64,000 nucleotides of DNA from a virus. Below, piece by piece: positions 30,699 to 58,302 of this stretch; the first letter of the stretch is position 1, and each line of letters begins with the position of its first letter. The stretch lies in the IMG/VR virus record IMGVR_UViG_3300032245_001746, positions 248,001 to 312,000 of that record, one strand, 5' to 3'. A model generated the notes under the pieces. It searched no databases. It was not told where the DNA came from and was given only the letters and a program-made list of their open reading frames with translations. A program made the position numbers and the translations under genes.

Positions 30699-31109
30699 TT
30701 AAATGAAAGTTTTCCGAATATTTCCCGTTGATACTTTCCAAGTATAACCCGAATCCTGACTGTTTTGAGTATCTGAAAATAACTCAAGAATTATTTCGCT
30801 CTCATCACATGATTTAATTAACTCTGTTTCAGTTAATAAATCACGAATGGAATTCGTCTTATTCATTTCATCTTCATCATCCCAACCCATATTTTGCAGG
30901 GCTTGACCAAAAATACAACCCTTACAATCTGGTCCAGCCAATTTATTACCATCTATTGCTGGTCCATTCCAGGAACAAAGAACAACATGGTCAGAAGTGT
31001 TATAACGAAAATCAGGGTTTTCGTCTGCCAAACGAACAACTTCTTTTCTCAATTTCTCAAAAAAATCAAGTTGAGTACCATTACTCAGAATCACTTCTGA
31101 AATCTTCAT
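30699..31109 (-). CDS. NMGW-family protein 1
   Basis: 136 residues (MKISEVILSNGTQLDFFEKL). The family has three conserved blocks: ENPDFxYN near residue 34, GPxCKGCIFGQALQNMGW near residue 60 and Q(D/N)xGxxW near the end. The two cysteines with an upstream Cys suggest a metal or redox site. The core is nearly identical at DNA level to the gene at 31327. Function unknown. Confidence 0.75.
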   Translation of the reverse strand: MKISEVILSNGTQLDFFEKLRKEVVRLADENPDFRYNTSDHVVLCSWNGPAIDGNKLAGPDCKGCIFGQALQNMGWDDEDEMNKTNSIRDLLTETELIKSCDESEIILELFSDTQNSQDSGYTWKVSTGNIRKTFI

Positions 31110-31168
31110 GTTGTATCCTTGTTATTAAGAGTTGGAGTGGAATCAATTATTCCACACGTTAATGCTAT

Positions 31169-31330
31169 TTATTCTAAAGTGCGACTCAAAAATGAATGAA
31201 TAACTACATTTCCACTTTTTCGTGTTTCATAGCAATTCAAACATTCAAATAATCCAACACTACATGTTCGAATTAACGTACCAGCCCTTCCATTTCCTGC
31301 CTTGCAGGTTTCACACTGATTAAATGTCAT
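31169..31330 (-). CDS. small zinc-ribbon protein
   Basis: 53 residues: MTFNQCETCKAGNGRAGTLI then FECLNCYETRK. CxxC pairs at about 6-9 and 30-33 form a zinc ribbon. The ATG overlaps the stop of the gene at 31327 (ATGA), so it is translationally coupled. Confidence 0.65.
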   Translation of the reverse strand: MTFNQCETCKAGNGRAGTLIRTCSVGLFECLNCYETRKSGNVVIHSFLSRTLE

Positions 31331-31773
31331 GGATTTTTACTTGTTTCTTGAAGCAATTTTGAAATTCTTTCAATTGCTTTACCCCAGGATGCTCCATTAT
31401 CCTGATCAACTTGTGTATCCCTAAAAGATACAATCCATTTGTGAGTTCGAGGAGTTAAAATATCAGCATATTCTGTACACAGTATTTCTGATATATTGTG
31501 TCCACAATTCATTTCGTTTTCATCATCCCAACCCATATTTTGCAGGGCTTGACCAAAAATACAACCCTTACAATCTGGTCCAGCTTGAATTGGTGTCACA
31601 GATAAAGATGTTTTCAAAGTTGCTGGACCATTGTAATGGCAAGAAGCAAGCCTTTCAGAAGTATTATACTGAAAATCAGGATTTTCCGTTCCCAATTTAA
31701 CTACTTCTACTGCCACTTGCTTTACAAACTCAAGTTCAGAATTGAACTTGGCAATAATTTCTTTTAAATTCAT
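31327..31773 (-). CDS. NMGW-family protein 2
   Basis: 148 residues (MNLKEIIAKFNSELEFVKQV). Same blocks as 30699: LGTENPDFQYN, CHYNGP, GPDCKGCIFGQALQNMGW, then DQDNGASWGKAIE. A longer insert precedes the Cys block. Promoter 31803 lies upstream of the gene at 31829, or a read-through start is used. Confidence 0.75.
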   Translation of the reverse strand: MNLKEIIAKFNSELEFVKQVAVEVVKLGTENPDFQYNTSERLASCHYNGPATLKTSLSVTPIQAGPDCKGCIFGQALQNMGWDDENEMNCGHNISEILCTEYADILTPRTHKWIVSFRDTQVDQDNGASWGKAIERISKLLQETSKNP

Positions 31774-31828
31774 GATGTTATCCTTGTGGTTGATGTCACT
31801 CTATTGTACAATCAAACTTGATTTGATT

Positions 31829-32008
31829 TTACCACCATTCAGGTATTTCTTGATTTTTTTGATCTTCTTGATTTACATCAGAAATAACAAAAACTGGTGT
31901 TAGATTACCGTTTTGTTTCAATTTGATGTACATGCCTTTTACGATATATTTAATTTCACCTTGATACAACAAAACTGTATCACCTGTCTGAAGAATAACG
32001 TTTGACAT
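31829..32008 (-). CDS. small hypothetical protein
   Basis: 59 residues: MSNVILQTGDTVLLYQGEIK then YIKLKQNGNLTPVFVISDVN and a terminal EWW. It looks like a small beta-barrel of the KOW/SH3 kind (GDTVLLYQGE). The ATG follows a weak ribosome-binding site. Promoter 31803 lies just after its stop. Confidence 0.6.
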   Translation of the reverse strand: MSNVILQTGDTVLLYQGEIKYIVKGMYIKLKQNGNLTPVFVISDVNQEDQKNQEIPEWW

Positions 32009-32099
32009 GATTTTTATCTCAAATGGACTATAACAGAATTGAACTGTTTCTAATCACTATTATCGTGATCGTGCTCCGTACACTAATAATCCAGAGTTT
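32009..32099 (-). other. gene-free spacer with small hairpin
   Basis: A 91-bp spacer. ACTATTATCGTGAT at about 32058 can form a weak hairpin; I see no ORF and no array promoter. Confidence 0.3.
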
Positions 32100-32354
32100 T
32101 CAACCAACCAAATGAATTACCAGCGAAATGATACTGGAAATTGCACAAACAATTGTTGAAATCCAAAGACCAATAGTAACATAAAACTTCTCGAAACCAA
32201 TCGAATGCAATTTGTGAGAATTCAACTTATTCAAATCCATCTTGGATACATTTCCAAAAATAGATCGCACAGCAAAAACATGCCATGCCACAGTTGCAAC
32301 AAACAAAACCACAGCAGAAACAGCAAAAATAACAAACAAATTCATTGCCGTCAT
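32100..32354 (-). CDS. two-helix membrane protein
   Basis: 84 residues (MTAMNLFVIFAVSAVVLFVA), transmembrane segments at about 4-24 and 58-80. Coupled by an ATGA overlap to the stop of the gene at 32351. Confidence 0.65.
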   Translation of the reverse strand: MTAMNLFVIFAVSAVVLFVATVAWHVFAVRSIFGNVSKMDLNKLNSHKLHSIGFEKFYVTIGLWISTIVCAISSIISLVIHLVG

Positions 32355-32716
32355 TTTCTCAACTCCAAAAAGAAATTCAAAACATCAATCGTAAAATAAA
32401 TGGGTTCATTTTTTTGATCAACACCCGTTGTGTGACCATGAATCCATTTTTCAAATTGATCAACAAGACCAAATCCATCCAAATAATCAAACAGAAATTT
32501 CTGTGTATATCCCAACGCAGTGTTGGGAAGAATATGAATTTGTGATTTGATCCGCTCAATTGCAGTATCAACAACCAAATATTTCAATTCTTCAAGAGAA
32601 ATGTTGCCATGAACTGGATGGGTATATGGCTTGTTGTCTCGAAAACAAGCCAATGCAGCCTGAACTTCTTTCAAAGCTGAAAAGGAAATTGAAGACAATT
32701 GTTCTTTTTTGCTCAT
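32351..32716 (-). CDS. helical hypothetical protein
   Basis: 121 residues from MSKKEQLSSISFSALKEV. All-helical prediction with a basic core; no family. Promoter 32749. Confidence 0.65.
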   Translation of the reverse strand: MSKKEQLSSISFSALKEVQAALACFRDNKPYTHPVHGNISLEELKYLVVDTAIERIKSQIHILPNTALGYTQKFLFDYLDGFGLVDQFEKWIHGHTTGVDQKNEPIYFTIDVLNFFLELRK

Positions 32717-32780
32717 CTTATAACTCCAGAAAAGATTGATATTAACACATTGTACAATCAAACTTCATTGTATTAAAACA

Positions 32781-32810
32781 AAAAAAGAACAGGAAAATTT
32801 CCTGTTCTTT
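32781..32810 (-). terminator. intrinsic terminator after class A RNA copy 2
   Basis: AAAGAACAGGAAA pairs with TTTCCTGTTCTTT, followed by T7. Confidence 0.85.
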
Positions 32811-32896
32811 AGCGATTTTTTAATAATTAGTGTTTTACTCGTCATTAACTAGAAAGTTAATTCTAATTAATACACCGCCAAACGCTCCACACTAAT
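32811..32896 (-). ncRNA. pseudoknotted RNA, class A copy 2
   Basis: P1 ATTAGTGT/ACACTAAT, GGAGCGTTT, GGCGGTGT, a hairpin ATTAACT/AGTTAAT, ACGAGTAAA, P1', then AAAAAATCGCT. Here the pseudoknot is GGCGGT with ATCGCT, with a G-U pair on the minus strand (it would be an A-C mismatch on the plus strand). It follows a 56-residue gene. Confidence 0.75.
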
Positions 32897-32968
32897 GTTC
32901 TACTTTATACTATTGTGAGTATTAAATCCTAATCAATAAGTAGAAAAATGATTAGGTCAAAAATATGA
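32897..32968 (-). other. 3' untranslated spacer
   Basis: A 72-bp AT-rich spacer between the 56-residue gene and class A RNA copy 2. ATTAGGAT/ATGATTAG-type repeats could pair weakly. Confidence 0.3.
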
Positions 32969-33139
32969 TTAACAGAACAGTTGTTCCATTGCTTTGTCAA
33001 ATTCTTTTTCTGACATAGAACTCAAAACACCAATTTCAGGTGCCTTAGAAACAAACTTATTCTGATTTGTCTGCAAATTCGTAATGGTAAATCCACCATT
33101 CTCAGATCGAATTCTGTATTTTTTACTTTGAACGTTCAT
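32969..33139 (-). CDS. small hypothetical protein
   Basis: 56 residues: MNVQSKKYRIRSENGGFTIT ... FDKAMEQLFC. A two-strand N-terminal part precedes a helix. Its ATG is 19 bp from promoter 33158, and class A RNA copy 2 is on the same transcript. Confidence 0.65.
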   Translation of the reverse strand: MNVQSKKYRIRSENGGFTITNLQTNQNKFVSKAPEIGVLSSMSEKEFDKAMEQLFC

Positions 33140-33178
33140 CATTTCTCACAATCCTTCATTGTACAATCAAACTTCATG

Positions 33179-33313
33179 AAGTTGAACAATTAACTAATTA
33201 CCTAATAAAAGTGGCACAATTCTAATTAAATAAGTTGTACTAGGCAGATATTTTGTACCTATTAGGTAATCCACCCTGATAATTAGTTAGTTGCTCAAAC
33301 TCACAATTCTCGT
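33179..33313 (-). ncRNA. long-hairpin RNA between two promoters
   Basis: No ORF. Minus-strand GAGCAACTAACTAATTA pairs with TAATTAGTTAATTGTTC (17 positions, one mismatch, one G-U), and after a 10-nt bulge TTACCTAATA pairs with TATTAGGTAA. It starts at promoter 33314 and ends at promoter 33158 without an obvious terminator. Confidence 0.6.
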
Positions 33314-33350
33314 ATTGTACAATCAAACTTCATTAGAAGTAAATAAATAA

Positions 33351-33386
33351 AACAGGGAATAAGAATTCATCATTCCTATTCCCCGA
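33351..33386 (-). terminator. intrinsic terminator after class A RNA copy 3
   Basis: GGGAATAGGAAT pairs with ATTCTTATTCCC around a short loop, then TGTTTT. Confidence 0.7.
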
Positions 33387-33463
33387 GCGATTTTTTAATA
33401 CTTAACGTTTTACTCGTACGTTTGTAATAAATACAAACACATCGCTAAACGCTCCACGTTAAG
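33387..33463 (-). ncRNA. pseudoknotted RNA, class A copy 3
   Basis: P1 is CTTAACGT/ACGTTAAG, so several base pairs have changed on both sides compared with the other copies, while GGAGCGTTT, AGCGATGT, ACGAGTAAA and ATCGCT are unchanged. The variable hairpin is GTTTGTA/TACAAAC. The pseudoknot pair AGCGAT/ATCGCT is fully Watson-Crick here. Confidence 0.8.
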
Positions 33464-33568
33464 ATAATTGACCCCCAACATCATGGTCAATTGGACTAAT
33501 TTTATCTGTAATAATTACCTCAAAACAACAACAAAAATTAGTTAAAAACCATTGTTTTGAGTGATGTA
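33464..33568 (-). other. 3' untranslated region of AT-hook gene 2
   Basis: Gene-free. An AATTGACC/GGTCAATT hairpin lies at about 33467-33494, and TCAAAACAA repeats flank the stop codon. It links the AT-hook gene to class A RNA copy 3, so both may share a transcript. Confidence 0.4.
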
Positions 33569-34009
33569 TTAAGCCGCTACGGAAACCTCAACCGGCTCAG
33601 GAGTCAGCAAATCAATATATGTCTGACCCTTTGCGTCAACGTGCTCAGAAACCATTGCGAGCAATTTCGCAGTGATATCTACACCACGGGTGAGATCAGA
33701 ATAAAGATCCACCAATTCCGGCTTTGTACAAGAAGCACGAAGCTTTTCCATAATAACTCGGTGAGTCTTATCAACAACTGCCGTTGCTGAATTCTTATTC
33801 TTAGAACCCTTCGGACGACCACGACCAGGCTTTTCAGCCTTAATCGGAGTAAGATCCAAAACAATTCCGTACTCCACAATCTTATCAGCAATATAACTTG
33901 CTGACAAATTCGTAGAACGTGCAACCGCATTGATCAACTGCAATTCATCCTTGCAGTTTTCAAAAGATCGCACTGACAAAATTGCTGCTTCGAGACGTGT
34001 CTTTTCCAC
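33569..34009 (-). CDS. AT-hook DNA-binding protein 2
   Basis: 146 residues. The start is GTG with TTTGGAG 9 bp upstream, as in the relative at 18627; longer frames run through the operator. EKPGRGRPKGSKNKN (about 79-93) is the AT-hook, preceded by a helical region with ASYIADKIVEYG. The GRPKGSKNKN core is identical in the two genes, but the domain order differs (hook N-terminal in one, central in the other). Confidence 0.75.
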   Translation of the reverse strand: MEKTRLEAAILSVRSFENCKDELQLINAVARSTNLSASYIADKIVEYGIVLDLTPIKAEKPGRGRPKGSKNKNSATAVVDKTHRVIMEKLRASCTKPELVDLYSDLTRGVDITAKLLAMVSEHVDAKGQTYIDLLTPEPVEVSVAA

Positions 34010-34042
34010 TGTACTAAACTCCAAAAAAAACTGTTTTTGACT

Positions 34043-34062
34043 TGTCAACACCGTTGTTGACA
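34043..34062 (-). promoter_or_regulatory. operator-like palindrome, second copy
   Basis: TGTCAACAACGGTGTTGACA, identical to 19069-19088, just downstream of promoter 34070. Confidence 0.6.
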
Positions 34063-34086
34063 TCGTCATATTGTACAACCAAACTT

Positions 34087-34154
34087 CAAAGCCCTTCTCA
34101 ACTCTGAGAAGGAAGTCTGGTTTCGACTCTCCTGAGTCTTCTTCACATCACCTC
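34087..34154 (-). ncRNA. double-hairpin RNA, class C copy 2
   Basis: GACTC-AGGA-GAGTC and CCTTCTC-AGAGTT-GAGAAGG. Between promoter 34155 and the AT-hook promoter, as in copy 1. The stems are kept, while loops and linkers differ and the 13-codon frame of copy 1 is lost. Confidence 0.55.
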
Positions 34155-34194
34155 ATTGTACAATCAAACTTCCTGTTAAAGAAGTATGTTTCAA

Positions 34195-34410
34195 TTACAA
34201 ATATGATTTTACCTTGTGAATTTGTCCAATGGTCTTTTGATCATTAAAATCCATAATAATTAACTTATCAGCAGTAACATAAACAGATTTTGCTGATGAA
34301 AATGACGCCTTCATATCCTCAATATTGTGAAATACTCCATTGTCTTCTGGACCAATGAATGTTTCATTGTTTGTCTGGAAAATTACAACATATTTTGTTT
34401 GACGATTCAT
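34195..34410 (-). CDS. small hypothetical protein
   Basis: 71 residues (MNRQTKYVVIFQTNNETFIG), alpha/beta. ATGA overlap with the gene at 34407. Confidence 0.65.
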   Translation of the reverse strand: MNRQTKYVVIFQTNNETFIGPEDNGVFHNIEDMKASFSSAKSVYVTADKLIIMDFNDQKTIGQIHKVKSYL

Positions 34411-34853
34411 GATATTTTTCCAATTGCATTAGAGATCATTTCTTTTACCGTTTTTCGTCCACTTTTCTCTCCAATATTGTAAAATGTATTAGCAAATATG
34501 GAAAGAAATGAAATCAATTGTCCTGATTCCACAATTTTCGTTAAAGCAACTTTGAACAATCTCTCTTCCAAAACATTAGTCAATAATGTCTCTTCTGTTT
34601 CTGTTTTGTTGATAACTCCAATTACAGTTGGATCTGTAATTTCAATTCGAAGTTTCAATCCCAAATTGGAAAAAACAATTGCACTATCCTTCGATTGATC
34701 AGAATCTCGAAAGAAAATTTCACTTTCATTAAAATCAACTGGTTTCCAAACAACAGAACGAGTCAAAATCAAATCTGAATAATCTTCACCAATACAAATT
34801 GTGATTGAATCATTGTTGTCTTTTGTGATGTTAACTCGTGTCATTTTAACCAT
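34407..34853 (-). CDS. hypothetical protein
   Basis: 148 residues (a start at MTRVNI three codons later is possible). A beta-rich N-terminal part (TICIGEDYSDLILTR, EIFFRDSDQSKDSAIVFSN) is followed by helices. The first part resembles the protein at 40287 (ITVWLGP..., SIFFGQ, LFSMNERATNCVF), suggesting distant paralogues. Promoter 34880. Confidence 0.65.
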   Translation of the reverse strand: MVKMTRVNITKDNNDSITICIGEDYSDLILTRSVVWKPVDFNESEIFFRDSDQSKDSAIVFSNLGLKLRIEITDPTVIGVINKTETEETLLTNVLEERLFKVALTKIVESGQLISFLSIFANTFYNIGEKSGRKTVKEMISNAIGKIS

Positions 34854-34888
34854 CCAAAAAAATCTTTTACTTCAACACCATTGTACAA

Positions 34889-35296
34889 TCAAACTTCAAG
34901 AAGTGGTTTAATTGCTTCACCCCAAGAAGCACCAAAATCTTGTTTGCTTTGAATTTCCTGCAAAATATTAAGTTTTTGACGATCAATACCTCTGTTTTTC
35001 AGAACATAAATAATTGGACCAGCCATTTCCTCTTCAGAATTCCAACCCATATTCTGAAATGCCTGTCCAAAAATACAACCCTTGCATTCCGGTCCAATCT
35101 GGACTTTTTCAAATCCTAACTTGTCAGACCATGTTTCATTATATGATGGTCCAGAATATGAACAATAACGACCACCATTTTTAAGATTGTAAATAAAATC
35201 AGGATTTTCTGTTCCTAATTTAATTACTTCCGTCTTCAATACAGAAAGAAATTCATCTTCTGATGAATACTTTGCAATTAATTCACTCAGTTTCAT
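34889..35296 (-). CDS. NMGW-family protein 3
   Basis: 135 residues from MKLSELIAKYSSEDEFL, with AAGGATAATAAA upstream. It has LGTENPDFIYN, CSYSGP, GPECKGCIFGQAFQNMGW (one change from the others) and QDFGASWGEAIKPLL. Promoter 35331. Confidence 0.75.
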   Translation of the reverse strand: MKLSELIAKYSSEDEFLSVLKTEVIKLGTENPDFIYNLKNGGRYCSYSGPSYNETWSDKLGFEKVQIGPECKGCIFGQAFQNMGWNSEEEMAGPIIYVLKNRGIDRQKLNILQEIQSKQDFGASWGEAIKPLLEV

Positions 35297-35339
35297 TTTA
35301 TTATCCTTCAAAATTACTTGATATCATCGTATTGTACAA

Positions 35340-35750
35340 TCAAACTACTTTTCTAAAAAGTGGTTTAATTGCTTCACCCCAACTAAGCCCTTTATCTTGA
35401 TCGTTTTGAATTTCCTGAAAAACATCAAGCTTTGTATAATGAAATTCATGATTTCTCAAAACTGTGGAAATTGAACCAATTAATTCCTCTTCAGGATTCC
35501 AACCCATATTTTGTAGGGCTTGACCGAAAATACAACCCTTACATTCCGGTCCAACTGTTTTCTTTATAGGATTTAACCAATCAGTATTGTTAGTACGATA
35601 TGCTGGTCCATTGTAAGAACAAAGACCAAGATTTCCAGGATTGTAAATAAAATCAGGATTTTCTGTTCCTAATTTAATTACTTCTGATTTCAATGCAGAA
35701 AGAAATTCATCTTGAGATGAATACTTTGCAATTATTTCACTCAGTTTCAT
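35340..35750 (-). CDS. NMGW-family protein 4
   Basis: 136 residues from MKLSEIIAKYSSQDEFL. The first 30 codons are nearly identical to the gene at 34889 and the middle differs, consistent with a recent tandem duplication. Contains GPECKGCIFGQALQNMGW and QDKGLSWGEAIKPLF. Confidence 0.75.
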   Translation of the reverse strand: MKLSEIIAKYSSQDEFLSALKSEVIKLGTENPDFIYNPGNLGLCSYNGPAYRTNNTDWLNPIKKTVGPECKGCIFGQALQNMGWNPEEELIGSISTVLRNHEFHYTKLDVFQEIQNDQDKGLSWGEAIKPLFRKVV

Positions 35751-35884
35751 TTTACTATCCTTCAAAAGTGTTTTACGAACGCTTCGGATTTCCACCGAAT
35801 TAACATGGAACTAATTTGTCACAGTAGTTAATCGGCAGGTCTTTAAGGTGACATTCCTCTACCCACCTAGTTTCATTCCATGAT
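35751..35884 (-). promoter_or_regulatory. structured leader without array promoter
   Basis: 134 bp without a gene. Minus-strand CATGG...AACTA pairs with TAGTT-CCATG; GTCAC pairs with GTGAC, or AGGTG with CACCT as an alternative; TTCGG/CCGAA forms a hairpin before the ribosome-binding site of the NMGW gene. Mutually exclusive stems suggest a switchable leader or a processed intergenic RNA. Confidence 0.4.
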
Positions 35885-35886
35885 AC

Positions 35887-36186
35887 TCATTCGTTCTCAT
35901 TAAATAACTTATTTTTGATCATTTCACGCAATTGTGCAAATTCAACATTTTCCAAATTTACTGTAACCATCTTCAATATCTCGCCAGTAATTGTAAATAA
36001 ATCAGCGAGTTCCTTTGTTGCTTTCAAAGATCCTTGATATGGAATTATAGCAATGCAAAGATCGTTATACTTATCTGCATTTGGTTTTTGTACAACCCAA
36101 TTTCCATCAATACGACATTTGCTCTGTACATCTTGAAAAAATGTAGCAATTCGATTCATTTCTTCTTCAAGCTTTGTTTCTGCCAT
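35887..36186 (-). CDS. hypothetical protein
   Basis: 99 residues from MAETKLEEEMNRIATFF, chosen because GAGGACAATTCAA is the ribosome-binding site. Helical with one strand region, ending KLFNENE, the same seven residues as the next gene upstream. Confidence 0.6.
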   Translation of the reverse strand: MAETKLEEEMNRIATFFQDVQSKCRIDGNWVVQKPNADKYNDLCIAIIPYQGSLKATKELADLFTITGEILKMVTVNLENVEFAQLREMIKNKLFNENE

Positions 36187-36197
36187 TTGAATTGTCC

Positions 36198-36455
36198 TCA
36201 TTCGTTCTCATTAAATAATTTAATTGTGGCTGGCTTATCAGTCTCAGGCTGAGAAAAAATAGGCTGAGAAAGAAATGAAAAGAAATGAAGAGATAACAAT
36301 TCCCCCTCATTAATTTTAAGAACCAACCCATTATCCTCATTGGTAAAACCAACGTCAATTCCAACCGTTTTTACATATAGGTTGTAGCCAGTAACAAAAT
36401 CAAGAACTCTTGACTTTGTCAAATTGTCCGTTACATGTGTCCAAAATGCAAACAT
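36198..36455 (-). CDS. hypothetical protein
   Basis: 85 residues (MFAFWTHVTDNLTKSRVLDF), beta-rich. The 3' end (KLFNENE and the following bases) is repeated at the end of the gene at 35887, a short direct repeat of about 25 bp. Confidence 0.6.
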   Translation of the reverse strand: MFAFWTHVTDNLTKSRVLDFVTGYNLYVKTVGIDVGFTNEDNGLVLKINEGELLSLHFFSFLSQPIFSQPETDKPATIKLFNENE

Positions 36456-36664
36456 TATTCCGTTTCCTTAACAGCATTTAATAACGCATCTTCAAGTTTG
36501 TTCAATGCTTCCATGATTTTCGCATGCTTTTCATCATACCAATTTTCATCAATTGGTTCTCTTTTAAAGAGAACTGTATTGTCCACAATACAAGAAACCC
36601 AAGCAGCATTGACATTAATTTTCAATTTACGATTTTTATCGTGAATTTCAATGTTTGCAAGCAT
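36455..36664 (-). CDS. small hypothetical protein
   Basis: 69 residues (MLANIEIHDKNRKLKINVNA): two strands followed by a helix. It overlaps the neighbouring genes by 1 and 17 bp, so the four genes at 35887-36935 form an operon. Confidence 0.6.
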   Translation of the reverse strand: MLANIEIHDKNRKLKINVNAAWVSCIVDNTVLFKREPIDENWYDEKHAKIMEALNKLEDALLNAVKETE

Positions 36665-36935
36665 TATTCTGCTTTCTGAGAAAGAATTGCTTCAACTTTT
36701 CTGGATTGTTTGGAATGAAATAATAAACCTTGTAATCTATCTTTCCGTCAAATTCAAACTCAAAATCCAATCTTCCAGAAATTAAAACCCTTTTCTTGCC
36801 AAGTTTCAAACTCAAAGTCAACTTGACAGTATTCGGAATTCTCTTATTAGAAAATCCCCAGGAACTAATATTATAACCATTTGAACTAAATGTCAAATGA
36901 TCACATAAGTATTTTGAATCAAACTTTAAAATCAT
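36648..36935 (-). CDS. hypothetical protein
   Basis: 95 residues from MILKFDSKYLCDHLTFS. Beta-rich middle, basic C-terminus FFLRKQNNACKH. First gene after promoter 36986. Confidence 0.65.
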   Translation of the reverse strand: MILKFDSKYLCDHLTFSSNGYNISSWGFSNKRIPNTVKLTLSLKLGKKRVLISGRLDFEFEFDGKIDYKVYYFIPNNPEKLKQFFLRKQNNACKH

Positions 36936-36987
36936 TGTTGTTTCCTTGATTGTATAGCCATTGTTGTTTCCTTGATTGTATAGCCAT
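36936..36987 (-). repeat. tandem duplication of a leader
   Basis: A 26-bp unit beginning ATTGTTGTTTCCTTGATTGT is present twice in a row between promoter 36986 and the ATG, duplicating the ribosome-binding site. A single copy of the same leader precedes the gene at 37006. Confidence 0.7.
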
Positions 36988-37005
36988 TGTACAATCAAAC
37001 TTCAA

Positions 37006-37401
37006 TTACCATTCTTGATGGTATAAAGCATCTTCAATTTTAAGCTCTTCATTTAGCATTAACCACAAAATGATTGTAGTTAAACTAATTTCAACATATT
37101 TAAACTCACCTTGGTGAATTCTTTCTGTTGTAAACAATTTGAGCGAATCAACATATATGCTCATGTTCTTGTAACGTCCAAAACTCAAATACTCTTCTGG
37201 ATTTTTAAGAAGATAAGCATATTTGGATTCACCTGACAATACATGACCATCTGCATTTGTTGGATATGTCACGTCAAAAACAGGTTTGGTAAATTTAACA
37301 TTGTAAATCCCATCTTTTGTGGATTCCCAACCTGTTAATTCACAAAATACACTTATCACCTCATTAATGTCAATGTATTTCAATGTTTCAGCAATAATCA
37401 T
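37006..37401 (-). CDS. hypothetical protein
   Basis: 131 residues from MIIAETLKYIDINEVIS; GGAAACAACA upstream. Mixed fold, no family. Promoter 37422 (variant AAATTT). Confidence 0.65.
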   Translation of the reverse strand: MIIAETLKYIDINEVISVFCELTGWESTKDGIYNVKFTKPVFDVTYPTNADGHVLSGESKYAYLLKNPEEYLSFGRYKNMSIYVDSLKLFTTERIHQGEFKYVEISLTTIILWLMLNEELKIEDALYHQEW

Positions 37402-37430
37402 TGTTGTTTCCTTGATTATACATTGTACAA

Positions 37431-37745
37431 TCAAATTTCAAGACCACTAAATAATCCCTCTTCAATTGAACCTTCATCACGAATTACTCGTGCTTTAGTA
37501 AGTTCAATGAATTTAGGTCTGTTCTTTAACCTGTTCCTAATAGGATTTGTAGCAACAATTAATCCTAACATCATTTCAATGCAAATTGTATCAATTTCAA
37601 ACAAAGTTAATAACTGATCAATTTCATCAAACTTTCTTTCACACATCATGTTATTAATCAAGATATACATCTTGTCAATTCCACGATCCCTGCTCTCCAA
37701 ACAAATATTGTTTGATGAAATTATTTCATCATAATATTGATTCAT
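37431..37745 (-). CDS. hypothetical protein
   Basis: 104 residues (MNQYYDEIISSNNICLESRD). All-helical, with a segment MMCERKFDEIDQLLTLFEID typical of small phage adaptor-like proteins. ATGA overlap with the gene at 37742. Confidence 0.65.
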   Translation of the reverse strand: MNQYYDEIISSNNICLESRDRGIDKMYILINNMMCERKFDEIDQLLTLFEIDTICIEMMLGLIVATNPIRNRLKNRPKFIELTKARVIRDEGSIEEGLFSGLEI

Positions 37746-37942: not shown

Positions 37943-37951
37943 TTTCAAATC

Positions 37952-38840: not shown

Positions 38841-38900
38841 GTTTTTTCCTTTGGTAACATCATCACATTGTACAATCAAACTTATATAAGTGTTTATGTA

Positions 38901-49020: not shown

Positions 49021-49026
49021 ATTTAT

Positions 49027-50689: not shown

Positions 50690-50741
50690 TGTATTTTTCC
50701 TTTGTTTGAACCTTATTGTACAATCAAACTACTTTTTTTCA

Positions 50742-51131: not shown

Positions 51132-51134
51132 ATT

Positions 51135-51317: not shown

Positions 51318-51330
51318 GATTTGTTATCTT

Positions 51331-51540: not shown

Positions 51541-51613
51541 TTTTTTTGTTTTCCGTTAAATTTTAGTTTAATTGATTCAGTTTAATACTATTGTACAATC
51601 AAACTTTGTAATA

Positions 51614-51796
51614 TTATTGGTGTGCAAGAAACCAAATAATAATTCCGAAAAAGACAAACATTGCGATAAAATAAACAGCACAACCAGCAGCTTGCTGTGC
51701 ATTAATTGGTTCTTTTTCGCATTTTTCGCACAAAATGCCTAATGGACCATAATCGTTTGTTGCGAATTTACCACATCTTGTGCATGAATTTTTCAT
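51614..51796 (-). CDS. zinc-ribbon membrane protein
   Basis: 60 residues: MKNSCTRCGKFATNDYGPLG, ILCEKCEKEP, then one transmembrane helix (about 36-57). CxxCG/CxxC should bind zinc at the cytoplasmic face. Confidence 0.65.
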   Translation of the reverse strand: MKNSCTRCGKFATNDYGPLGILCEKCEKEPINAQQAAGCAVYFIAMFVFFGIIIWFLAHQ

Positions 51797-51799
51797 AAA

Positions 51800-51913
51800 T
51801 TATTTATTCCTTTTCATTAAAGAGGTGTCAGTCATGATCCCTGTAAATTTATCTCCAAAAGCATTACATTTTCGACAAACAAATGTAATTTGCAAACTAA
51901 TTCCAACTTTCAC
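51800..51913 (-). CDS. small GTG-start protein, coupled
   Basis: 37 residues, KVGISLQITFVCRKCNAFGD ... SLMKRNK. The GTG overlaps the TGA of the upstream gene (GTGA). CRKC suggests half a zinc site. The ribosome-binding site is poor, so coupling would be needed; it could also be a remnant. Confidence 0.45.
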   Translation of the reverse strand: MKVGISLQITFVCRKCNAFGDKFTGIMTDTSLMKRNK

Positions 51914-52341
51914 CAATTTGGATTATACTCATTTTCGCCTTCTCTTTCAACTATTTTAAGGTATCCAGCTTCTTTCAATCTTTGTGCCGATTTTCTTTCT
52001 GAGATATTTAAACTTGAAATACTTATGAAACATAAATTGTATGCTAGTTGTCTAAGTAACACTTTCATATTATGAATAATATCATTTGAAGAAGCAGCAG
52101 CAAATCCTTGCCACGCTGAAACAAATGATTTCCAATCCCACGTTGCATCATCGCCTTGACGAATAATCTCCAATACTTGGTCTCTATTGACTTTTTCTAC
52201 TTCATCAGTCAATAAATTTTTAAGAATCATTCCATCGGCAATTTTCAATTCATATTTTTGGTGCGTAAAATTCGTTTCAAAAACGATTGAACCAGTCATG
52301 AGACATGAAGTGGCACTATGAATTTTAATGTTACCAGTCAT
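51910..52341 (-). CDS. hypothetical protein
   Basis: 143 residues (MTGNIKIHSATSCLMTGSIV). Helical C-terminal half ending ENEYNPNW. AAGGATTCAAAT upstream. Promoter 52362. Confidence 0.65.
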   Translation of the reverse strand: MTGNIKIHSATSCLMTGSIVFETNFTHQKYELKIADGMILKNLLTDEVEKVNRDQVLEIIRQGDDATWDWKSFVSAWQGFAAASSNDIIHNMKVLLRQLAYNLCFISISSLNISERKSAQRLKEAGYLKIVEREGENEYNPNW

Positions 52342-52453
52342 ATTTGAATCCTTTTTGGATCATTGTACAATCAAACACTGACTATTATCTTGAGAACTTT
52401 GAACTTCTCTTAATAAGAAAAAATATTCATTGTCTTTATTGGAATCTTTATTT

Positions 52454-52783
52454 TTAAGAAACTTGTTGATTCCAAATATTTTTATTTTGTTTTTCTTTTT
52501 TAATTGAATTAAATTTTCGATAGTAATTTACCACTTCATCTCCGATACATACTGGAATTATGTAGAAAATTAAAGTGAGTAAAAAAAATATAATAGCACA
52601 AACCAAAACAACAAGTACACAAGAAGTAACTAGGTAAAATCCAATAATGGGATATTCAATTAAATCTGGAATTGAATCAAACTCTGGCATAATTGCCGAG
52701 TAATAATTCATTAACATTCCTAGCAAACCAAGAAAAACAATGAACACTGTCAGAATAATTGCTCCAATAGACCATGATTTCAT
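52454..52783 (-). CDS. membrane protein
   Basis: 109 residues with three hydrophobic stretches (about 6-28, 48-66 and 66-82) and a basic tail KKEKQNKNIW. It overlaps the upstream NMGW gene by 4 bp. The spacer 52377-52453 has no gene. Confidence 0.65.
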   Translation of the reverse strand: MKSWSIGAIILTVFIVFLGLLGMLMNYYSAIMPEFDSIPDLIEYPIIGFYLVTSCVLVVLVCAIIFFLLTLIFYIIPVCIGDEVVNYYRKFNSIKKEKQNKNIWNQQVS

Positions 52784-53166
52784 TTTAATTTTCCTGACAA
52801 AAGTGTTTTAATTGCTTCACCCCAAGAATGACCTTCATCTTGTAGTTGCTGAACAACCAAAAAATGACTATCATATGTAATGATGTTATCAGATATGAGG
52901 TTTGTAAATAATCGAACCAAATTCATTTCAATGAATAATTCGTATTTATCATCCCAACCCATATTTTGGAGTGCTTGACCAAAGATACATCCTTTGCATC
53001 CTGGTCCTGTATCTGATCCGCGATTATAATAACACCGCCCAACACCACTGGTGTTATACACAAAATCAGGATTTTCCGTTCCTAATTTAATTACTTCTTG
53101 CTTTAGTGCATCAAAAAACGCATCAGCATTTTCGTTGTATTTTTTATAAACATCAATTAATTTCAT
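52780..53166 (-). CDS. NMGW-family protein 5
   Basis: 128 residues from MKLIDVYKKYNENADAFF. LGTENPDFVYN, CYYNRG, GPGCKGCIFGQALQNMGW (Pro/Glu replaced by Gly) and QDEGHSWGEAIKTLL. Confidence 0.75.
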   Translation of the reverse strand: MKLIDVYKKYNENADAFFDALKQEVIKLGTENPDFVYNTSGVGRCYYNRGSDTGPGCKGCIFGQALQNMGWDDKYELFIEMNLVRLFTNLISDNIITYDSHFLVVQQLQDEGHSWGEAIKTLLSGKLK

Positions 53167-53168
53167 GA

Positions 53169-53570
53169 TTAATTGCTCCATCTATTTAGTGGTTCAATTG
53201 CTTCTTGCCATGATTTTCCATGATCTTGATTAGTTTGAACTTCGCTCAAAATATTTAAGTATATACTGTTTTCTGTTTTTGAAACACAACCTTTTACGTT
53301 AGCATCTACGTCAAGAATGTAAGCGATAGAATCGCGACTTTCTAATTCATCTGAATCATTCCAACCCATATTTTGGAGTGCTTGACCAAAAATGCATCCT
53401 TTACTTTCTTTGCCACCTTCTGGACCTCGATTATAATAGCACTGACCAATGCTATTTGAATTGTAAATAAAATCGGGATTTTCAACAGCAAGTGTTTGAA
53501 CTTTTTCTTTAATCTTTGTAAGAAAAGAAAGATCAGATTCAAATTGACTACGAATTTCAGCAAGTTTCAT
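53169..53570 (-). CDS. NMGW-family protein 6
   Basis: 133 residues (MKLAEIRSQFESDLSFLTKI). Here the first block Cys is missing (GKESKGCIFGQALQNMGW: CKGC is SKGC), so the first Cys of the pair is not essential or the copy is decaying. Promoter 53594, a variant with GTGCAAT. Confidence 0.72.
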   Translation of the reverse strand: MKLAEIRSQFESDLSFLTKIKEKVQTLAVENPDFIYNSNSIGQCYYNRGPEGGKESKGCIFGQALQNMGWNDSDELESRDSIAYILDVDANVKGCVSKTENSIYLNILSEVQTNQDHGKSWQEAIEPLNRWSN

Positions 53571-53622
53571 ATTTGTTTTTCCTTTATTGTATCATTGTGC
53601 AATCAAACTTAGATTTCTTACT

Positions 53623-53838
53623 TCAAGTTAAGGCATTTTCGAAAAATGGAGTATTAATCCATTTTAAATATTCAGCACAGCCGAAAAGTTCTTGAGATAC
53701 CATGCCAATTCCAGATTGCCAAACTTGAAATTTTACAACAGATTTACTGTCTTCAAAAAAGCTTGACCAAAAATCAATATCAGAAACAACTACTTCTTGA
53801 ACTTTTTGTCTATCACACAGCAATCGAATTGTGTACAT
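53623..53838 (-). CDS. small hypothetical protein
   Basis: 71 residues (MYTIRLLCDRQKVQEVVVSD). Short alpha/beta protein with aromatic-rich centre. No array promoter directly upstream. Confidence 0.6.
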   Translation of the reverse strand: MYTIRLLCDRQKVQEVVVSDIDFWSSFFEDSKSVVKFQVWQSGIGMVSQELFGCAEYLKWINTPFFENALT

Positions 53839-53861
53839 TTTTATACCTAATAAAAAAAATT

Positions 53862-53946
53862 GTCACACCTGATAGCTCCATGCTACCTATGCTTTTTACA
53901 CCAAACTTAAATTAAAGTCCCACTCAACTTTAATTTAAGTTGTGAC
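53862..53946 (-). ncRNA. three-way-junction RNA after an NMGW gene
   Basis: GTCACA pairs with TGTGAC; inside are a perfect 14-bp stem (53904-53917 with 53928-53941, AACTTAAATTAAAG) and GGTAGC/GCTATC around ATGGA. T8 follows on the minus strand, so it may end transcription. The stretch TTTGGT...AGCTATCA recurs at 13.28 kb. Confidence 0.55.
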
Positions 53947-54320
53947 TAAGTGGTTTCGAATAATGGCTGAATTGCTTTTCCCCAAGTAAATCCACTATCT
54001 TGATAAGCTTGAACAGTAATAAACGCACTATCTTCAGACATAAAGTCTGATCTAATCAGACTATTAAACAAATCATCAACAGTTGATTTATTTGCCAATT
54101 CATCTGGATCATTCCACCCCATATTTTGGAGGGCTTGACCAATAATACATCCTTTACATTCTGGACCATTTTCTACACCAGAATTGTAATGACACATTTG
54201 TTGATTAGGATTGTAAACAAAATCGGGATTTTCCGCTCCCAATTTAACTAGTTGATATCTGAATGAATCAAAAAATTCAACTTCATTTTTGTATTTTTTT
54301 ACAACATCATTTAATTTCAT
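53946..54320 (-). CDS. NMGW-family protein 7
   Basis: 124 residues from MKLNDVVKKYKNEVEFF. LGAENPDFVYN, CHYNSG, GPECKGCIIGQALQNMGW and QDSGFTWGKAIQPLF. Promoter 54354. Confidence 0.75.
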   Translation of the reverse strand: MKLNDVVKKYKNEVEFFDSFRYQLVKLGAENPDFVYNPNQQMCHYNSGVENGPECKGCIIGQALQNMGWNDPDELANKSTVDDLFNSLIRSDFMSEDSAFITVQAYQDSGFTWGKAIQPLFETT

Positions 54321-54362
54321 GTTTAAATCCCATTTAGAGGTTGATGACTCATCATTGTACAA

Positions 54363-54521
54363 TCAAACTTGATTTAGGTGTTTAATTGCATTTCCCCAAG
54401 AATGACCTGAATCTTGACTATTTTGAACTCTTGACAAAGACTGAATTATTTCGCTATAAATGCCATAATTGTGAAACATAGTTGTTACTCCAATTTGTTT
54501 TTTAAGTTCAATTAAATTCAT
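54363..54521 (-). CDS. internally deleted NMGW-family copy
   Basis: 52 residues: MNLIELKKQIGVTTMFHNYG ... SRVQNSQDSGHSWGNAIKHL. It keeps the family start and the C-terminal Q(D)SGxSWGxAIK block but lacks the ENPDF and Cys blocks. The frame stays open and is next to a promoter, so a shortened protein could be made. Confidence 0.6.
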   Translation of the reverse strand: MNLIELKKQIGVTTMFHNYGIYSEIIQSLSRVQNSQDSGHSWGNAIKHLNQV

Positions 54522-54536
54522 GATTTAATCCTTTGA

Positions 54537-55082
54537 TTAGACTGGCAATTCAATACCCAGAAATTTAATTATTTCTGATAATTCAATAACGGCAGATGAT
54601 TTGAAATTATGTTTCAAAATCTGATTAATTCCCATATCATTTTTAAAATGAGCTAATTGTAATGCAAATAATCCTTGTGTTTCAGATAAAAAGTGTGGTG
54701 AATCAACAGAATCAGAAATAATATTTCTGATTTCTTGTTCGGAACTTTCGATTCTATATGAGTGAATATTTCTGGAATTTCCATCCGTTAAAGATACTAG
54801 ATGTTCAAATCTATGTTTTTGACAATGAAAATTAATTTCTTCAATTAATTCTCTTTGCAATGCATCAACGAGATTTTCGCCAGGATCAACATTTCCTCCT
54901 GGAAATCCCAAACAACCATCCCATCTTGTTAACATTAAAACCAGAGGAATATTAATTCCTCTTTGTTCTTTTTCAACATGAGTATAACTAACATATGGTT
55001 TTGCGTTTGGTGTGTAAATTACACCAAAAACCATTTGTCTCATATTTGGTTGAATTTCACATGGTTCTATTTTAGAGTACAT
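54537..55082 (-). CDS. Nudix hydrolase
   Basis: 181 residues. The Nudix box is complete: GGNVDPGENLVDALQRELIE then EI (GX5EX7REUXEE), residues 66-87. The enzyme hydrolyses nucleoside diphosphate-X bonds, with mRNA caps, NAD or dinucleotides as possible substrates. FPGGNVDPGE resembles the decapping-like phage subfamily, which is inference. Confidence 0.88.
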   Translation of the reverse strand: MYSKIEPCEIQPNMRQMVFGVIYTPNAKPYVSYTHVEKEQRGINIPLVLMLTRWDGCLGFPGGNVDPGENLVDALQRELIEEINFHCQKHRFEHLVSLTDGNSRNIHSYRIESSEQEIRNIISDSVDSPHFLSETQGLFALQLAHFKNDMGINQILKHNFKSSAVIELSEIIKFLGIELPV

Positions 55083-55091
55083 AAAAAACTT

Positions 55092-55742
55092 TCAATTATT
55101 TTTGACAAAAGATTCAGCAAATTCTTTTACTTTTTGATGTGTTGTTTGTAAAATTGGGTTAATTATTTGATATAAAGCTTCCAATTTTGGTGGACGTGTC
55201 CAAAGTTTATCTTCATGAAACATGATAATATAATCATTCTCATAAAATGCAATTTCAAATATTGCGTTTTCTTTTTCATATGGAAATCGATTGATTGGCA
55301 ATTCTACATTGCCATAAACAATTTTACCATCAATTAATTTAGCAATTACACAATACGCAATTCCGCTTTCTATGTTGGATATTCTTCCTGGATTCCATTG
55401 AGTTATTTTGGAGTTATTCCATTGTTTTGGAAAAGATAAATGTGGACCATTCCACCAATTTCTGTATGGTACAATTAATGGAAAAATTCCATAGAAATTA
55501 TTTGCTTCCATTACTGCTTGATAAAAATCATTTAGACACAGATAAGTTTCATCATTTTTATTATCGCACATATTCATTAGTTGTTCTGCTTTTTCAAGCA
55601 TTACAAAATGAATATGATAGCATATTAATGGATAATGAATTTCTGGATCAAATTTGATTTGAATCAATTTATGAAAAAGTTCATTTATATCTTTTCCAGA
55701 TTGATTTTTGCAGTAAATATTAATTATTTCTTCGATTTTCAT
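55092..55742 (-). CDS. hypothetical protein
   Basis: 216 residues from MKIEEIINIYCKNQSGKD. Helical N-terminal third, then WWNGPHLSFPKQWNNSKITQ and a beta-rich part. The start shares a base with the stop of the gene at 55742. Confidence 0.65.
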   Translation of the reverse strand: MKIEEIINIYCKNQSGKDINELFHKLIQIKFDPEIHYPLICYHIHFVMLEKAEQLMNMCDNKNDETYLCLNDFYQAVMEANNFYGIFPLIVPYRNWWNGPHLSFPKQWNNSKITQWNPGRISNIESGIAYCVIAKLIDGKIVYGNVELPINRFPYEKENAIFEIAFYENDYIIMFHEDKLWTRPPKLEALYQIINPILQTTHQKVKEFAESFVKNN

Positions 55743-56332
55743 CACAAATACCATGAAGCATTGAATGGTTGAGTAAGTTTCTCAGATTTAAACTTTTCAA
55801 TTCTTCTCAAGGTTTCAATATCTTTTAAAACAGATTCTACGTGGTTGTGAATTTGCAGATAGGCTTTTGTACTTAATGTGATATGACCATCTACAAATAA
55901 AGAACTATTTCCATTCAAAGAATGGTATAGAATTCTTTCTCCACCGTATTTTTGATTATCATTTTTGTAAAGATTAGAAGTTTGAACATCAAAATATTCT
56001 GAATGTGTTTTATCGTTTACTACGATTGTTTCATAATAAATAAATATTGCAGAACCTGCATCCATTCTGGAATGAGTCGACCATTCTTCGTATTCATGAA
56101 GATTTTCTCTATCAATTGGAATGCAACATAGAAATTTATGTTTAGTTCCTGGTTTTTTATCAAATGTTTCATAAGGTTCAAATTTGTAGTATGTTTGCAC
56201 ATAGAATTTGTTTAAAACAAACTCATCTTTAAACGCTTCAGACAAATAAAACATTACTTCTGCACACGTTCGAGTAAAATTACTTAATCGAACATCAATA
56301 ATTGGTTCAAGTTTTGCCTCTGTGATATTCAT
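55742..56332 (-). CDS. hypothetical protein
   Basis: 196 residues (MNITEAKLEPIIDVRLSNFT). Mixed fold with a long C-terminal helix IHNHVESVLKDIETLRRIEK. Promoter 56359. Confidence 0.65.
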   Translation of the reverse strand: MNITEAKLEPIIDVRLSNFTRTCAEVMFYLSEAFKDEFVLNKFYVQTYYKFEPYETFDKKPGTKHKFLCCIPIDRENLHEYEEWSTHSRMDAGSAIFIYYETIVVNDKTHSEYFDVQTSNLYKNDNQKYGGERILYHSLNGNSSLFVDGHITLSTKAYLQIHNHVESVLKDIETLRRIEKFKSEKLTQPFNASWYL

Positions 56333-56383
56333 TTTTATCTCCAGTTGTTTTTAACAACATTGTACAATCAAACTTAATATTGT

Positions 56384-56563
56384 TTATTCTTGTTTTTCTA
56401 CAACAAAGAATTTATGATGTCCATTTGGATTTTCCTCAAGATATTGTTGTTCACAAAAATCTTTCCAATCATCACATTGTTGTTTTTCCTTTATTCCTCT
56501 GGACATTACTTTCCACAATTGTTGTTTATCTGTATGACTGTGCGTTCGAATTACATAAAACAT
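56384..56563 (-). CDS. small hypothetical protein
   Basis: 59 residues: MFYVIRTHSHTDKQQLWKVM ... HHKFFVVEKQE. Strand-helix-strand, similar at the N-terminus to the gene at 51331. It starts 16 bp after the gene at 56579. Confidence 0.6.
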   Translation of the reverse strand: MFYVIRTHSHTDKQQLWKVMSRGIKEKQQCDDWKDFCEQQYLEENPNGHHKFFVVEKQE

Positions 56564-56578
56564 TTTTACACCTGATTA

Positions 56579-57046
56579 TTAACAAGCATATTTAACAACA
56601 CCATAAATAATTTGAATATCAAACCATTGTTTCATGTATTCAATTTCATCTTTGAATAAAGTTTCAAATTGATCTAAAGATTTTTGAATCTTTTCTGGAG
56701 TAATTTCAAATTTAAGATAATCATCACAAGAATCTATGAATGAAATTTCATTTTGAAATTTGTTTGGAAAGTAGAATTGTAATGATTTTTCTTTTGAAGC
56801 ATATTCAATGTGATGATTAGGTAACAAAAAATCATCTAAATGACCTTTTGGATAATCTTCTTCCCAAAAATCTGGAGTGTCAGATACGGTTTGTTTCACA
56901 TATCTTTGACTTTTACTTCTTCCACATTTTGGGCAAAAATTCGCATCTTTTGGAAAATTATGCTTTTCACACAAATCAGTTTCAACTTCTTTGATATTTA
57001 CTGTTGCGATAATATATGGACCAATATAAGTATATTTATCACTCAT
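56579..57046 (-). CDS. zinc-finger hypothetical protein
   Basis: 155 residues from MSDKYTYIGPYIIATVN. CEKHNFPKDANFCPKCG (about 26-42) is a CxxH...CxxC zinc site; an acidic/aromatic part and helices follow. Confidence 0.65.
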   Translation of the reverse strand: MSDKYTYIGPYIIATVNIKEVETDLCEKHNFPKDANFCPKCGRSKSQRYVKQTVSDTPDFWEEDYPKGHLDDFLLPNHHIEYASKEKSLQFYFPNKFQNEISFIDSCDDYLKFEITPEKIQKSLDQFETLFKDEIEYMKQWFDIQIIYGVVKYAC

Positions 57047-57048
57047 TT

Positions 57049-57507
57049 TCAAACACTTTCTAATAGATTTTCTACGCAATTACTCCAGGAGTTTCCAGAA
57101 TCTTGTAAATTTTGTGTTTCTCGAAAAGAAGATAATAAAACATCAATTTGGTCATCAACAAATTCTAGTTGAAAAACTCCAGCAAAATTTCTTAAAATAG
57201 TCTTAATATTGTAAGTCACATTCATTTGTTGTGAATCAGTCCAGCCCATATTTTGGAGTGCTTGACCAAAAATGCAGCCTTTACAATCTGGACCTACAAC
57301 TTCTTGAATTTTATTTTCTTTATCAACTGAAACAACTGGACCATTATATTTACATTTTGTTCTTATTTTTAACGCTTTATTTTGTTCATAGTTTGGATTA
57401 TAAACAAAATTTGGATTTTCACTTGCTAGTTTCAAAACTTGTTTTTTAAGTTCAATTAAAAAATCTTGATGTGATTCGAATTTATTAACAATTTGTTTTA
57501 AGTTCAT
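57049..57507 (-). CDS. NMGW-family protein 8
   Basis: 152 residues from MNLKQIVNKFESHQDFL. The longest member, with an insert before GPDCKGCIFGQALQNMGW; ends QDSGNSWSNCVENLL. ATGA overlap with the gene at 57504. Confidence 0.75.
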   Translation of the reverse strand: MNLKQIVNKFESHQDFLIELKKQVLKLASENPNFVYNPNYEQNKALKIRTKCKYNGPVVSVDKENKIQEVVGPDCKGCIFGQALQNMGWTDSQQMNVTYNIKTILRNFAGVFQLEFVDDQIDVLLSSFRETQNLQDSGNSWSNCVENLLESV

Positions 57508-57899
57508 GAATGTTCCTCTAATTTTCCAATACAAAATCTTACAAATGACTGTTCTGTTTCATAGTCTAGAACCAATCCAGTAGTTTTATCAAATATCTTA
57601 CGATATTCTGGCGTTCCGTAGAAATCATCATAATATAGATTGTGAGAAGTTATTAGGTTCAGTTCAATTAGTGGCAATAAATGTTTTTCAAAAGAATATT
57701 CTTCTCCAACAAATTTTTCGAATTTTTCTTTTTCAATGTGAAATGGACGAACATATTCCACGAAACATTTTAGAGAAATTTTGTCTTCACCACTGATAAA
57801 ATCATTTGCGGCTTTTTCAATTTCTCCATCAGTAGTTTCTGATTCATAATAGAAACAGTTTCTTACCATCCAATTAAATAATTCATCTGGATTAACCAT
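57504..57899 (-). CDS. hypothetical protein
   Basis: 131 residues (MVNPDELFNWMVRNCFYYES), acidic, helical at the start. It overlaps the NMGW genes on both sides (4 and 8 bp). Confidence 0.65.
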   Translation of the reverse strand: MVNPDELFNWMVRNCFYYESETTDGEIEKAANDFISGEDKISLKCFVEYVRPFHIEKEKFEKFVGEEYSFEKHLLPLIELNLITSHNLYYDDFYGTPEYRKIFDKTTGLVLDYETEQSFVRFCIGKLEEHS

Positions 57900-58302
57900 T
57901 GTTTACTCTCAAAAGTTTAATGCAATCACCCCAAGATGGTCCAACATCTTGTGTTCTTTGAACTAAAAGAAGTTGTTCAGGCACTTTTAATTCTTCGCTA
58001 ACACAAGAATATAACAAATCTTCTATATCTACTCTTAACTTCATTTCTTTTTCATCATCCCACCCCATATTTTGTAGGGCTTGACCAAAAATACAACCCT
58101 TACATTCTGGACCTGTGATTTCATATTCTTGAGTTGAATTATTATAAACCTTTGCAGGACCGTTATAAAAGCATACTGATGCTGCTGAATTTGTATATTT
58201 AAAATCAGGTTTTTCTTTTCCAAGTTTAATGACTTCTTGAATTAAAGCTTTTACAAAATCATCACAAGATGGAAATTGACTGGCTATTTGTTGCAAATTC
58301 AT
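57892..58302 (-). CDS. NMGW-family protein 9
   Basis: 136 residues (MNLQQIASQFPSCDDFVKAL). GKEKPDFKYTN, CFYNGP, GPECKGCIFGQALQNMGW and QDVGPSWGDCIKLL. No array promoter between it and tRNA-Met. Confidence 0.75.
   Translation of the reverse strand: MNLQQIASQFPSCDDFVKALIQEVIKLGKEKPDFKYTNSAASVCFYNGPAKVYNNSTQEYEITGPECKGCIFGQALQNMGWDDEKEMKLRVDIEDLLYSCVSEELKVPEQLLLVQRTQDVGPSWGDCIKLLRVNNG

What the first reader, a model, noticed from the sequence alone, without database searches (positions are those of the whole stretch)
30699..58302. Nine-member NMGW protein family with conserved cysteine block and a deletion derivative
Genes at 30699, 31327, 34889, 35340, 52780, 53169, 53946, 57049 and 57892 share ENPDFxYN, a single Cys, GPxCKGCIFGQALQNMGW and QDxGxSWGxAIK, with unrelated spacers. 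DNA of the Cys block is almost identical between several copies, so gene conversion or recent duplication is likely. At 53169 the first Cys is Ser, and at 54363 both middle blocks are deleted. Repeated expansion of one small family suggests an arms-race role such as binding variable host factors.
Basis: partly seen in the sequence, partly recalled or inferred. Interest (0 to 1): 0.7.

Follow-up and report, generated by a model that had tools for sequence, protein, structure and literature searches.

The report
Expanded phage gene family, function unknown
A giant T4-type phage carries eleven diverged copies of a small protein family that other phages usually hold in one to five copies; it probably makes host-binding proteins used early in infection, but what they bind is not known.

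Summary
The window has nine full copies and one internally deleted remnant of a 124-152 aa family; two more full copies lie just beyond its end. All sit in the last 41 kb of a 320-kb record with a T4-type capsid gene. The family is not new: 30 of 30 aligned members hit PHROG 572 (unknown function), seen mainly in actinobacteriophages, where one to five copies per record were found. Eleven is the highest count here. The conserved features are C45-x-Y and C71-I-x-G-x-A-L, plus Q-x2-QD-x-G-x2-W. The CKGC cysteine C68 and NMGW itself belong only to this record's group. AlphaFold gives confident models, with no convincing PDB match. Gene conversion is mostly not supported: codon identity in the Cys block is near background; only two neighbouring pairs share long exact tracts (66 and 46 nt). 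The group expanded within its lineage by local duplication and changed mainly in loops. All copies lie in a 56-kb one-strand zone of small genes carrying 77 copies of a promoter-like element, AAGTTTGATTGTACAAT. Best reading: early host-takeover proteins, a conserved scaffold with variable surfaces. The arms-race role is plausible but untested. Interest moderate.

The parts
30699..31109 (-). family copy 1 (136 aa)
   Evidence: shares a 66-nt exact tract with copy 2
31327..31773 (-). family copy 2 (148 aa), promoter-like element 29 nt upstream
34889..35296 (-). family copy 3 (135 aa), element 34 nt upstream; frame open to 35311 from a TTG
35340..35750 (-). family copy 4 (136 aa); frame open to 35795 from a GTG; its stop overlaps the next element
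52780..53166 (-). family copy 5 (128 aa; 133 aa from the upstream ATG at 53181)
53169..53570 (-). family copy 6 (133 aa), Ser in place of C68; element with one mismatch just upstream at 53594-53610
53946..54320 (-). family copy 7 (124 aa), element 33 nt upstream; first AlphaFold model
54364..54521 (-). remnant: N-terminal start joined in frame to the C-terminal block, 52 codons, middle missing
57049..57507 (-). family copy 8 (152 aa), longest loops; second AlphaFold model
57892..58302 (-). family copy 9 (136 aa)
13373..62609 (-). zone with 71 copies of the promoter-like element AAGTTTGATTGTACAAT (core palindrome ATTGTACAAT), in which all window copies lie

Best explanation
This is a lineage-specific expansion of an already known, uncharacterised phage protein family (PHROG 572) inside the accessory early or host-takeover zone of a 320-kb phage with a T4-type capsid. 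Each gene makes a small, mostly acidic protein: a conserved scaffold (N-terminal helices; C45-x-Y strand; C71-I-x-G-x-A-L helix; Q-x2-QD-x-G-x2-W end) from which loops of variable length and sequence protrude. Inferred mechanism: the copies are made early, many from their own promoter, and bind host proteins to redirect or block them; duplicated copies diverge in the loops and so change or widen the target range. Shown: family membership, copy number, common origin, duplication of neighbours, conserved blocks, variable loops, shared one-strand zone with the element. Inferred: early timing, that the element is a promoter, host binding, and target change.
For: Membership: 30 of 30 members of alignment A6 hit phrog_572, best 1.2e-43; viral-model library hits are uncharacterised proteins, the named confident ones from actinophages, best E 4e-5. 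Expansion: 11 copies plus remnant here against 5 at most in 16 other records that hold the family; one group in the tree. Loops: pairwise identity among the 11 copies 0.81 and 0.87 in the ENPDF and Cys blocks, 0.14-0.33 in segments 38-50, 57-73 and 91-125 with 29-61% gaps. dN/dS of the six closest pairs 0.62-0.88, against 0.31-0.48 in the neighbouring DUF7666 paralogues. Location: all 12 matches at 278.7-314.9 kb of the record, inside 261.4-317.7 kb where 77 of 78 element sites lie on one strand; median - strand gene 99 aa; 8 of 10 neighbouring small proteins tested hit no PHROG. T4-type capsid (E 2.8e-89) and terminase.
Against: No functional datum was found for any member; no expression data. 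dN/dS below 1 overall can equally mean relaxed constraint, and the values above 1 in variable columns are circular because the columns were chosen for varying. The nearest capsid relative (66.6% identical, 595 kb) has no member (E <= 0.01) and only 4 near matches of the element, so the module is not general in that group. Only 3 of 9 window copies have an exact element just upstream, a fourth has one with a mismatch.
Confidence: 0.45

Rival explanations
1. Duplications in a permissive accessory zone: the ancestral gene has one ordinary phage-internal role (for example a small accessory factor in DNA or nucleotide metabolism) and the extra copies drift, some decaying, with no selection for new targets.
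For: A deletion remnant and a copy that lost C68 exist; a second unrelated family (DUF7666) is expanded in the same zone; overall dN/dS is compatible with relaxed constraint; one cluster E member lies next to the DnaB helicase gene.
Against: All 11 copies keep C45, C71 and the QD/W block with open frames, unlike drifting pseudogenes; conserved columns have dN 0.05-0.19 at dS 0.43-1.09 in the six closest pairs.
Confidence: 0.3
2. A redox-active or metal-binding protein: C45, C68 and C71 form a thiol pair or a three-cysteine metal or Fe-S site, and copies differ in redox tuning.
For: C45 and C71 are among the most conserved positions: C71 30 of 30 and C45 29 of 30 members (read); C68 is added in 10 of 11 copies here.
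Against: C68 is missing in many relatives and in copy 53169; no conserved His; no Pfam, NCBIfam or PDB relative of any redox or metal family.
Confidence: 0.15
3. Counter-defence proteins specifically (a narrower form of the main reading): each copy inhibits or mimics one bacterial anti-phage system.
For: Location, small acidic proteins (33 of 36 members with pI below 6.1), fast loops and multi-copy state are typical of such genes (general knowledge).
Against: No match to known families; PADLOC holds defence, not counter-defence, proteins and gives only one chance-level hit. Nothing links a copy to a defence system.
Confidence: 0.2

Closest known systems
PHROG 572 (unknown function), e.g. Rhodococcus phage Peregrin gp19, gp20, gp24; Gordonia phage Trax gp45, gp53; Mycobacterium phage Hoonter gp76, gp83
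   Same: Same profile over nearly the whole length, same invariant positions, same predicted fold for actinophage members, several copies per genome in some phages.
   Different: Other records have 1-5 copies, mostly lack the CKGC cysteine C68 and NMGW and have shorter loops; here 11 copies in a large phage with a T4-type capsid.
DUF6197 (PF19698)
   Same: Recalled resemblance: a C-x2-G helix start followed later by an ND motif; found in 5 of 13 family-bearing records.
   Different: No A6 member hits it at E <= 1; profile-profile probability 0.8%. Not a relative on this evidence.
Host-takeover modules with a promoter per gene (SPO1) and hypervariable early regions of T4-like phages (recalled, not looked up)
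   Same: Many small orphan genes on one strand with a repeated promoter-like element before them.
   Different: One paper search for the element's letters showed no phage paper in the 10 titles listed of 31; timing here is not measured.

Membership tests
PHROG 572 | profile match over most of the protein | tested here: met
   7 of 7 window copies tested, 30 of 30 A6 members, 11 copies plus remnant in the record
PHROG 572 | C-x-Y, C-[IL]-x-G, Q-x2-QD, W | tested here: met
   invariant or nearly invariant columns; all 11 copies keep C45, C71, Q121, Q124, D125, W130; Y47 is Trp in copy 30699
PHROG 572 | same predicted fold as actinophage members | tested here: met
   BFVD best E 4e-5, TM 0.67/0.72; named confident hits are actinophage proteins
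DUF6197 (PF19698) | profile match over the curated cut-off | tested here: not met
   not among the 9 families listed for 30 members at E <= 1; no match in the record; hhalign probability 0.8%, E 0.073
Protein kinase C-lobe-like fold | structural match | tested here: inconclusive
   best Z 3.5, rmsd 4.4, 108 aligned, many tied kinase chains, 8% identity; Foldseek E 0.67 or worse
Zn or Fe-S protein | three or four conserved Cys/His ligands across the family | tested here: not met
   only two cysteines and no histidine among invariant or nearly invariant columns of 30 members; whether metal is bound by this record's three-Cys group is not testable here
Known anti-phage defence proteins (PADLOC) | profile match | tested here: not met
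   1 of 30 members at E 0.015, the rest none at E <= 0.1

The most novel reading that the evidence does not exclude
The family is a general phage binding scaffold: a fixed core with swappable loops, duplicated to make a set of binders each aimed at a different host protein and switched on early by a shared phage promoter.
Probability: 0.22. Interest if true: 0.75.

Novelty: new member of a known kind. Interest (0 to 1): 0.42.

Why it matters
PHROG 572 is found in a hundred and more actinophage records (128 records with the window query; 222 with an actinophage query) and has no known function. A record with 11 diverged copies gives a natural comparison of what must stay and what may change, and a natural set for partner screens. 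The one-strand element array marks the whole zone as likely early, host-directed genes.

Tried and rejected
Sequence searches for a function: Pfam, NCBIfam, PADLOC, PDB sequences (best E 0.0072 to a designed protein, taken as chance): nothing convincing. Plasmids: no match. Species genomes: two scans found no relative, but these demand exact short peptides, so absence from bacteria is not shown.

The second-look Z values are at most 2.9 and 3.5; the second list is full of kinase C-lobes, which are very redundant in the PDB, so I do not claim a relation. A weak PDB result does not show that the fold is new.

DUF6197 and a phage CCLG-type protein (L011:6770-7198) looked similar by eye. Tested for DUF6197 and not supported. 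The CCLG protein had no relatives to build on.

Gene conversion as a general cause: rejected from codon data. dN/dS in variable columns above 1: reported as circular, not used as evidence.

Papers: searches (phrog_572; DUF7666) returned no paper. One search listed overexpression screens of mycobacteriophage genes (listing only); I ran one find in PMC7474061, which gave one reference mention and no member. Whether any screened gene belongs to this family was not settled. One search was a listing. In PMC13313380 I saw passages. One search listed papers holding the letters ATTGTACAAT; none of the 10 titles shown (of 31) concerns phages.
Full report
OBSERVATION. Over the whole 319,857-base virus record (the window is bases 248001-312000) a search with PHROG 572 finds 12 places: 11 full copies and the C-terminal part of the remnant, all between 278.7 and 314.9 kb. 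Two full copies lie beyond the window end. The 11 copies share 23 invariant columns. The remnant at 54364-54521 keeps a family-like start and the last block in one open frame of 52 codons.

WHAT IS CONSERVED. In the record's own copies C45 and C71 are in 11 of 11 and C68 in 10 of 11. In 30 members from this and other phages, C71, G74, the two Q of Q-x2-Q, D and W are invariant; C45 is in 29 of 30 (L020:2956 lacks it) and no histidine is conserved. So CKGC and NMGW are local features; the family's core is C45-x-Y, C71-I-x-G-x-A-L and Q-x2-QD-x-G-x2-W. The Ser of copy 53169 hits the non-universal cysteine.

FAMILY. 30 of 30 aligned members hit phrog_572, unknown function, best E 1.2e-43. By tblastn the 31327 copy finds 128 of 50,697 phage records, all of Mycobacterium, Gordonia or Rhodococcus phages; an actinophage member finds 222, nearly all actinophages. 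IMG/VR gave 4 relatives with the window copies and 11 loci with the actinophage members. No Pfam or NCBIfam family fits.

COPY NUMBER. In 16 other records known to hold the family (17 loci given, two in one record) the counts are 5, 5, 3, 3, five times 2 and seven times 1; some are near-duplicates of each other (same lengths as named isolates) and several are fragments. Eleven is the highest. Phages of the Peregrin and Weasels2 cluster, with 5 copies each here, are described as rich in small genes without known function (PMC13313380, passages seen).

HISTORY. A tree of 36 members puts the 11 copies in one group (support 89/72; 90% of 200 bootstrap trees), with neighbouring genes closest: 34889/35340, 52780/53946, 31327/30699. 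Many inner branches are weak (15 of 33 open). Codon identity at identical residues is 0.61 in the Cys block, 0.68 in ENPDF, 0.69 in the last block, 0.59 elsewhere; expected from codon usage 0.52-0.56. This does not single out the Cys block. Two neighbour pairs share exact tracts of 66 and 46 nt, but run-length permutation gives p 0.03 and 0.17 uncorrected in 55 pairs. Local conversion in the 30699/31327 pair is possible, not shown.

RATE. dN/dS in the six closest pairs is 0.62-0.88, against 0.31-0.48 in six DUF7666 paralogue pairs of the same zone; confidence intervals of five of the six family pairs include 1. Identity by segment is 0.81-0.87 in two blocks and 0.14-0.33 in three loop or inter-block segments with 29-61% gaps. 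The pattern is a fixed core with free loops. It fits diversifying or relaxed selection alike.

STRUCTURE. Two AlphaFold models, of the shortest and the longest window copy, are confident (pLDDT 84.9 and 90.5; pTM 0.83 and 0.87). The long copy shows helices 3-7 and 13-30, a helix at 40-45, three short strands (49-51, 59-61, 67-69; the first Cys follows the first strand), a helix from 79 just after the CKGC block, and C-terminal helices. PDB searches gave nothing convincing. Among viral models the confident named hits are uncharacterised actinophage proteins.

SETTING. The record has a T4-type major capsid gene (E 2.8e-89) and a terminase (E 1.9e-8); its closest capsid in the phage collection is 66.6% identical, from a 595-kb uncultured phage, LR756511. 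The palindrome ATTGTACAAT occurs 71 times in the window (TTGTACAAT 145 strand matches against 1.66 expected). With its flank the element is AAGTTTGATTGTACAAT, with a weak ATAT about 7 bases downstream. In the record 77 of 78 sites (up to 2 mismatches) lie on one strand between 261.4 and 317.7 kb. 48 of 71 window sites lie within 100 nt upstream of a called - strand gene, median 37 nt; 6 lie inside a called gene; 11 of 71 follow a simple terminator-like hairpin, against 4.5% of random positions. Two of the six tRNA genes (16553, 23921) start about 10 nt after an element, which fits a -10-like promoter box better than a translation signal. The promoter reading is an inference. A 102-kb IMG/VR fragment carries 12 of these elements on one strand (up to one mismatch) but no family member; LR756511 has only 4 near matches and no member. 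So element and family are separable.

MECHANISM. I commit to early host-takeover proteins that bind host factors through variable loops (0.45). Location, size, charge and pattern of change support it. No function, timing or partner is shown. Rivals are accessory drift around one phage-internal role (0.3), counter-defence in particular (0.2, a narrower form of the main reading) and a redox or metal protein (0.15); they overlap, so the numbers do not add to one.

VERDICT. A real and well-described observation of a known but unstudied family, with the largest copy number seen here. The element array around it may be the more useful discovery.

Noticed in passing
window 13373-62609, and 261.4-317.7 kb of the record: 71 copies of the palindrome ATTGTACAAT in the window, extended AAGTTTGATTGTACAAT, 77 of 78 record sites on one strand before small genes and two tRNAs: a repeated promoter-like element marking a 56-kb zone.
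   Followed up: partly
window 40759, 41347, 41866, 43617, 47344, 58417, 62618 (- strand), 8201 (+): A second expanded family, DUF7666 with C-terminal YDxNNNxxxYEDSxGxW repeats in several copies: 8 linked proteins by BLAST, 3 of 3 tested hit PF24703.
   Followed up: partly
L009:3776-4267: A phage contig with a relative of the NMGW family also holds a protein with the same YD-type repeats about 1.6 kb away.
   Followed up: no
IMGVR_UViG_3300032245_001763 (L032, L040, L045, L062, L065): A 102-kb contig with 12 of the same elements on one strand, one before what reads like a tRNA gene; possibly a relative of this phage, without NMGW members.
   Followed up: partly
window 4610-6781 (+): A helicase whose nucleotide-binding loop appears to be interrupted by an intein or homing element; its insert-like part begins after GFAGTGK (relatives). 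Read by eye.
   Followed up: no
window 54537-55082 and 38175-38879 (- strand): A Nudt16-like Nudix hydrolase and a calcineurin-like phosphoesterase gene lie among the orphan small genes.
   Followed up: no
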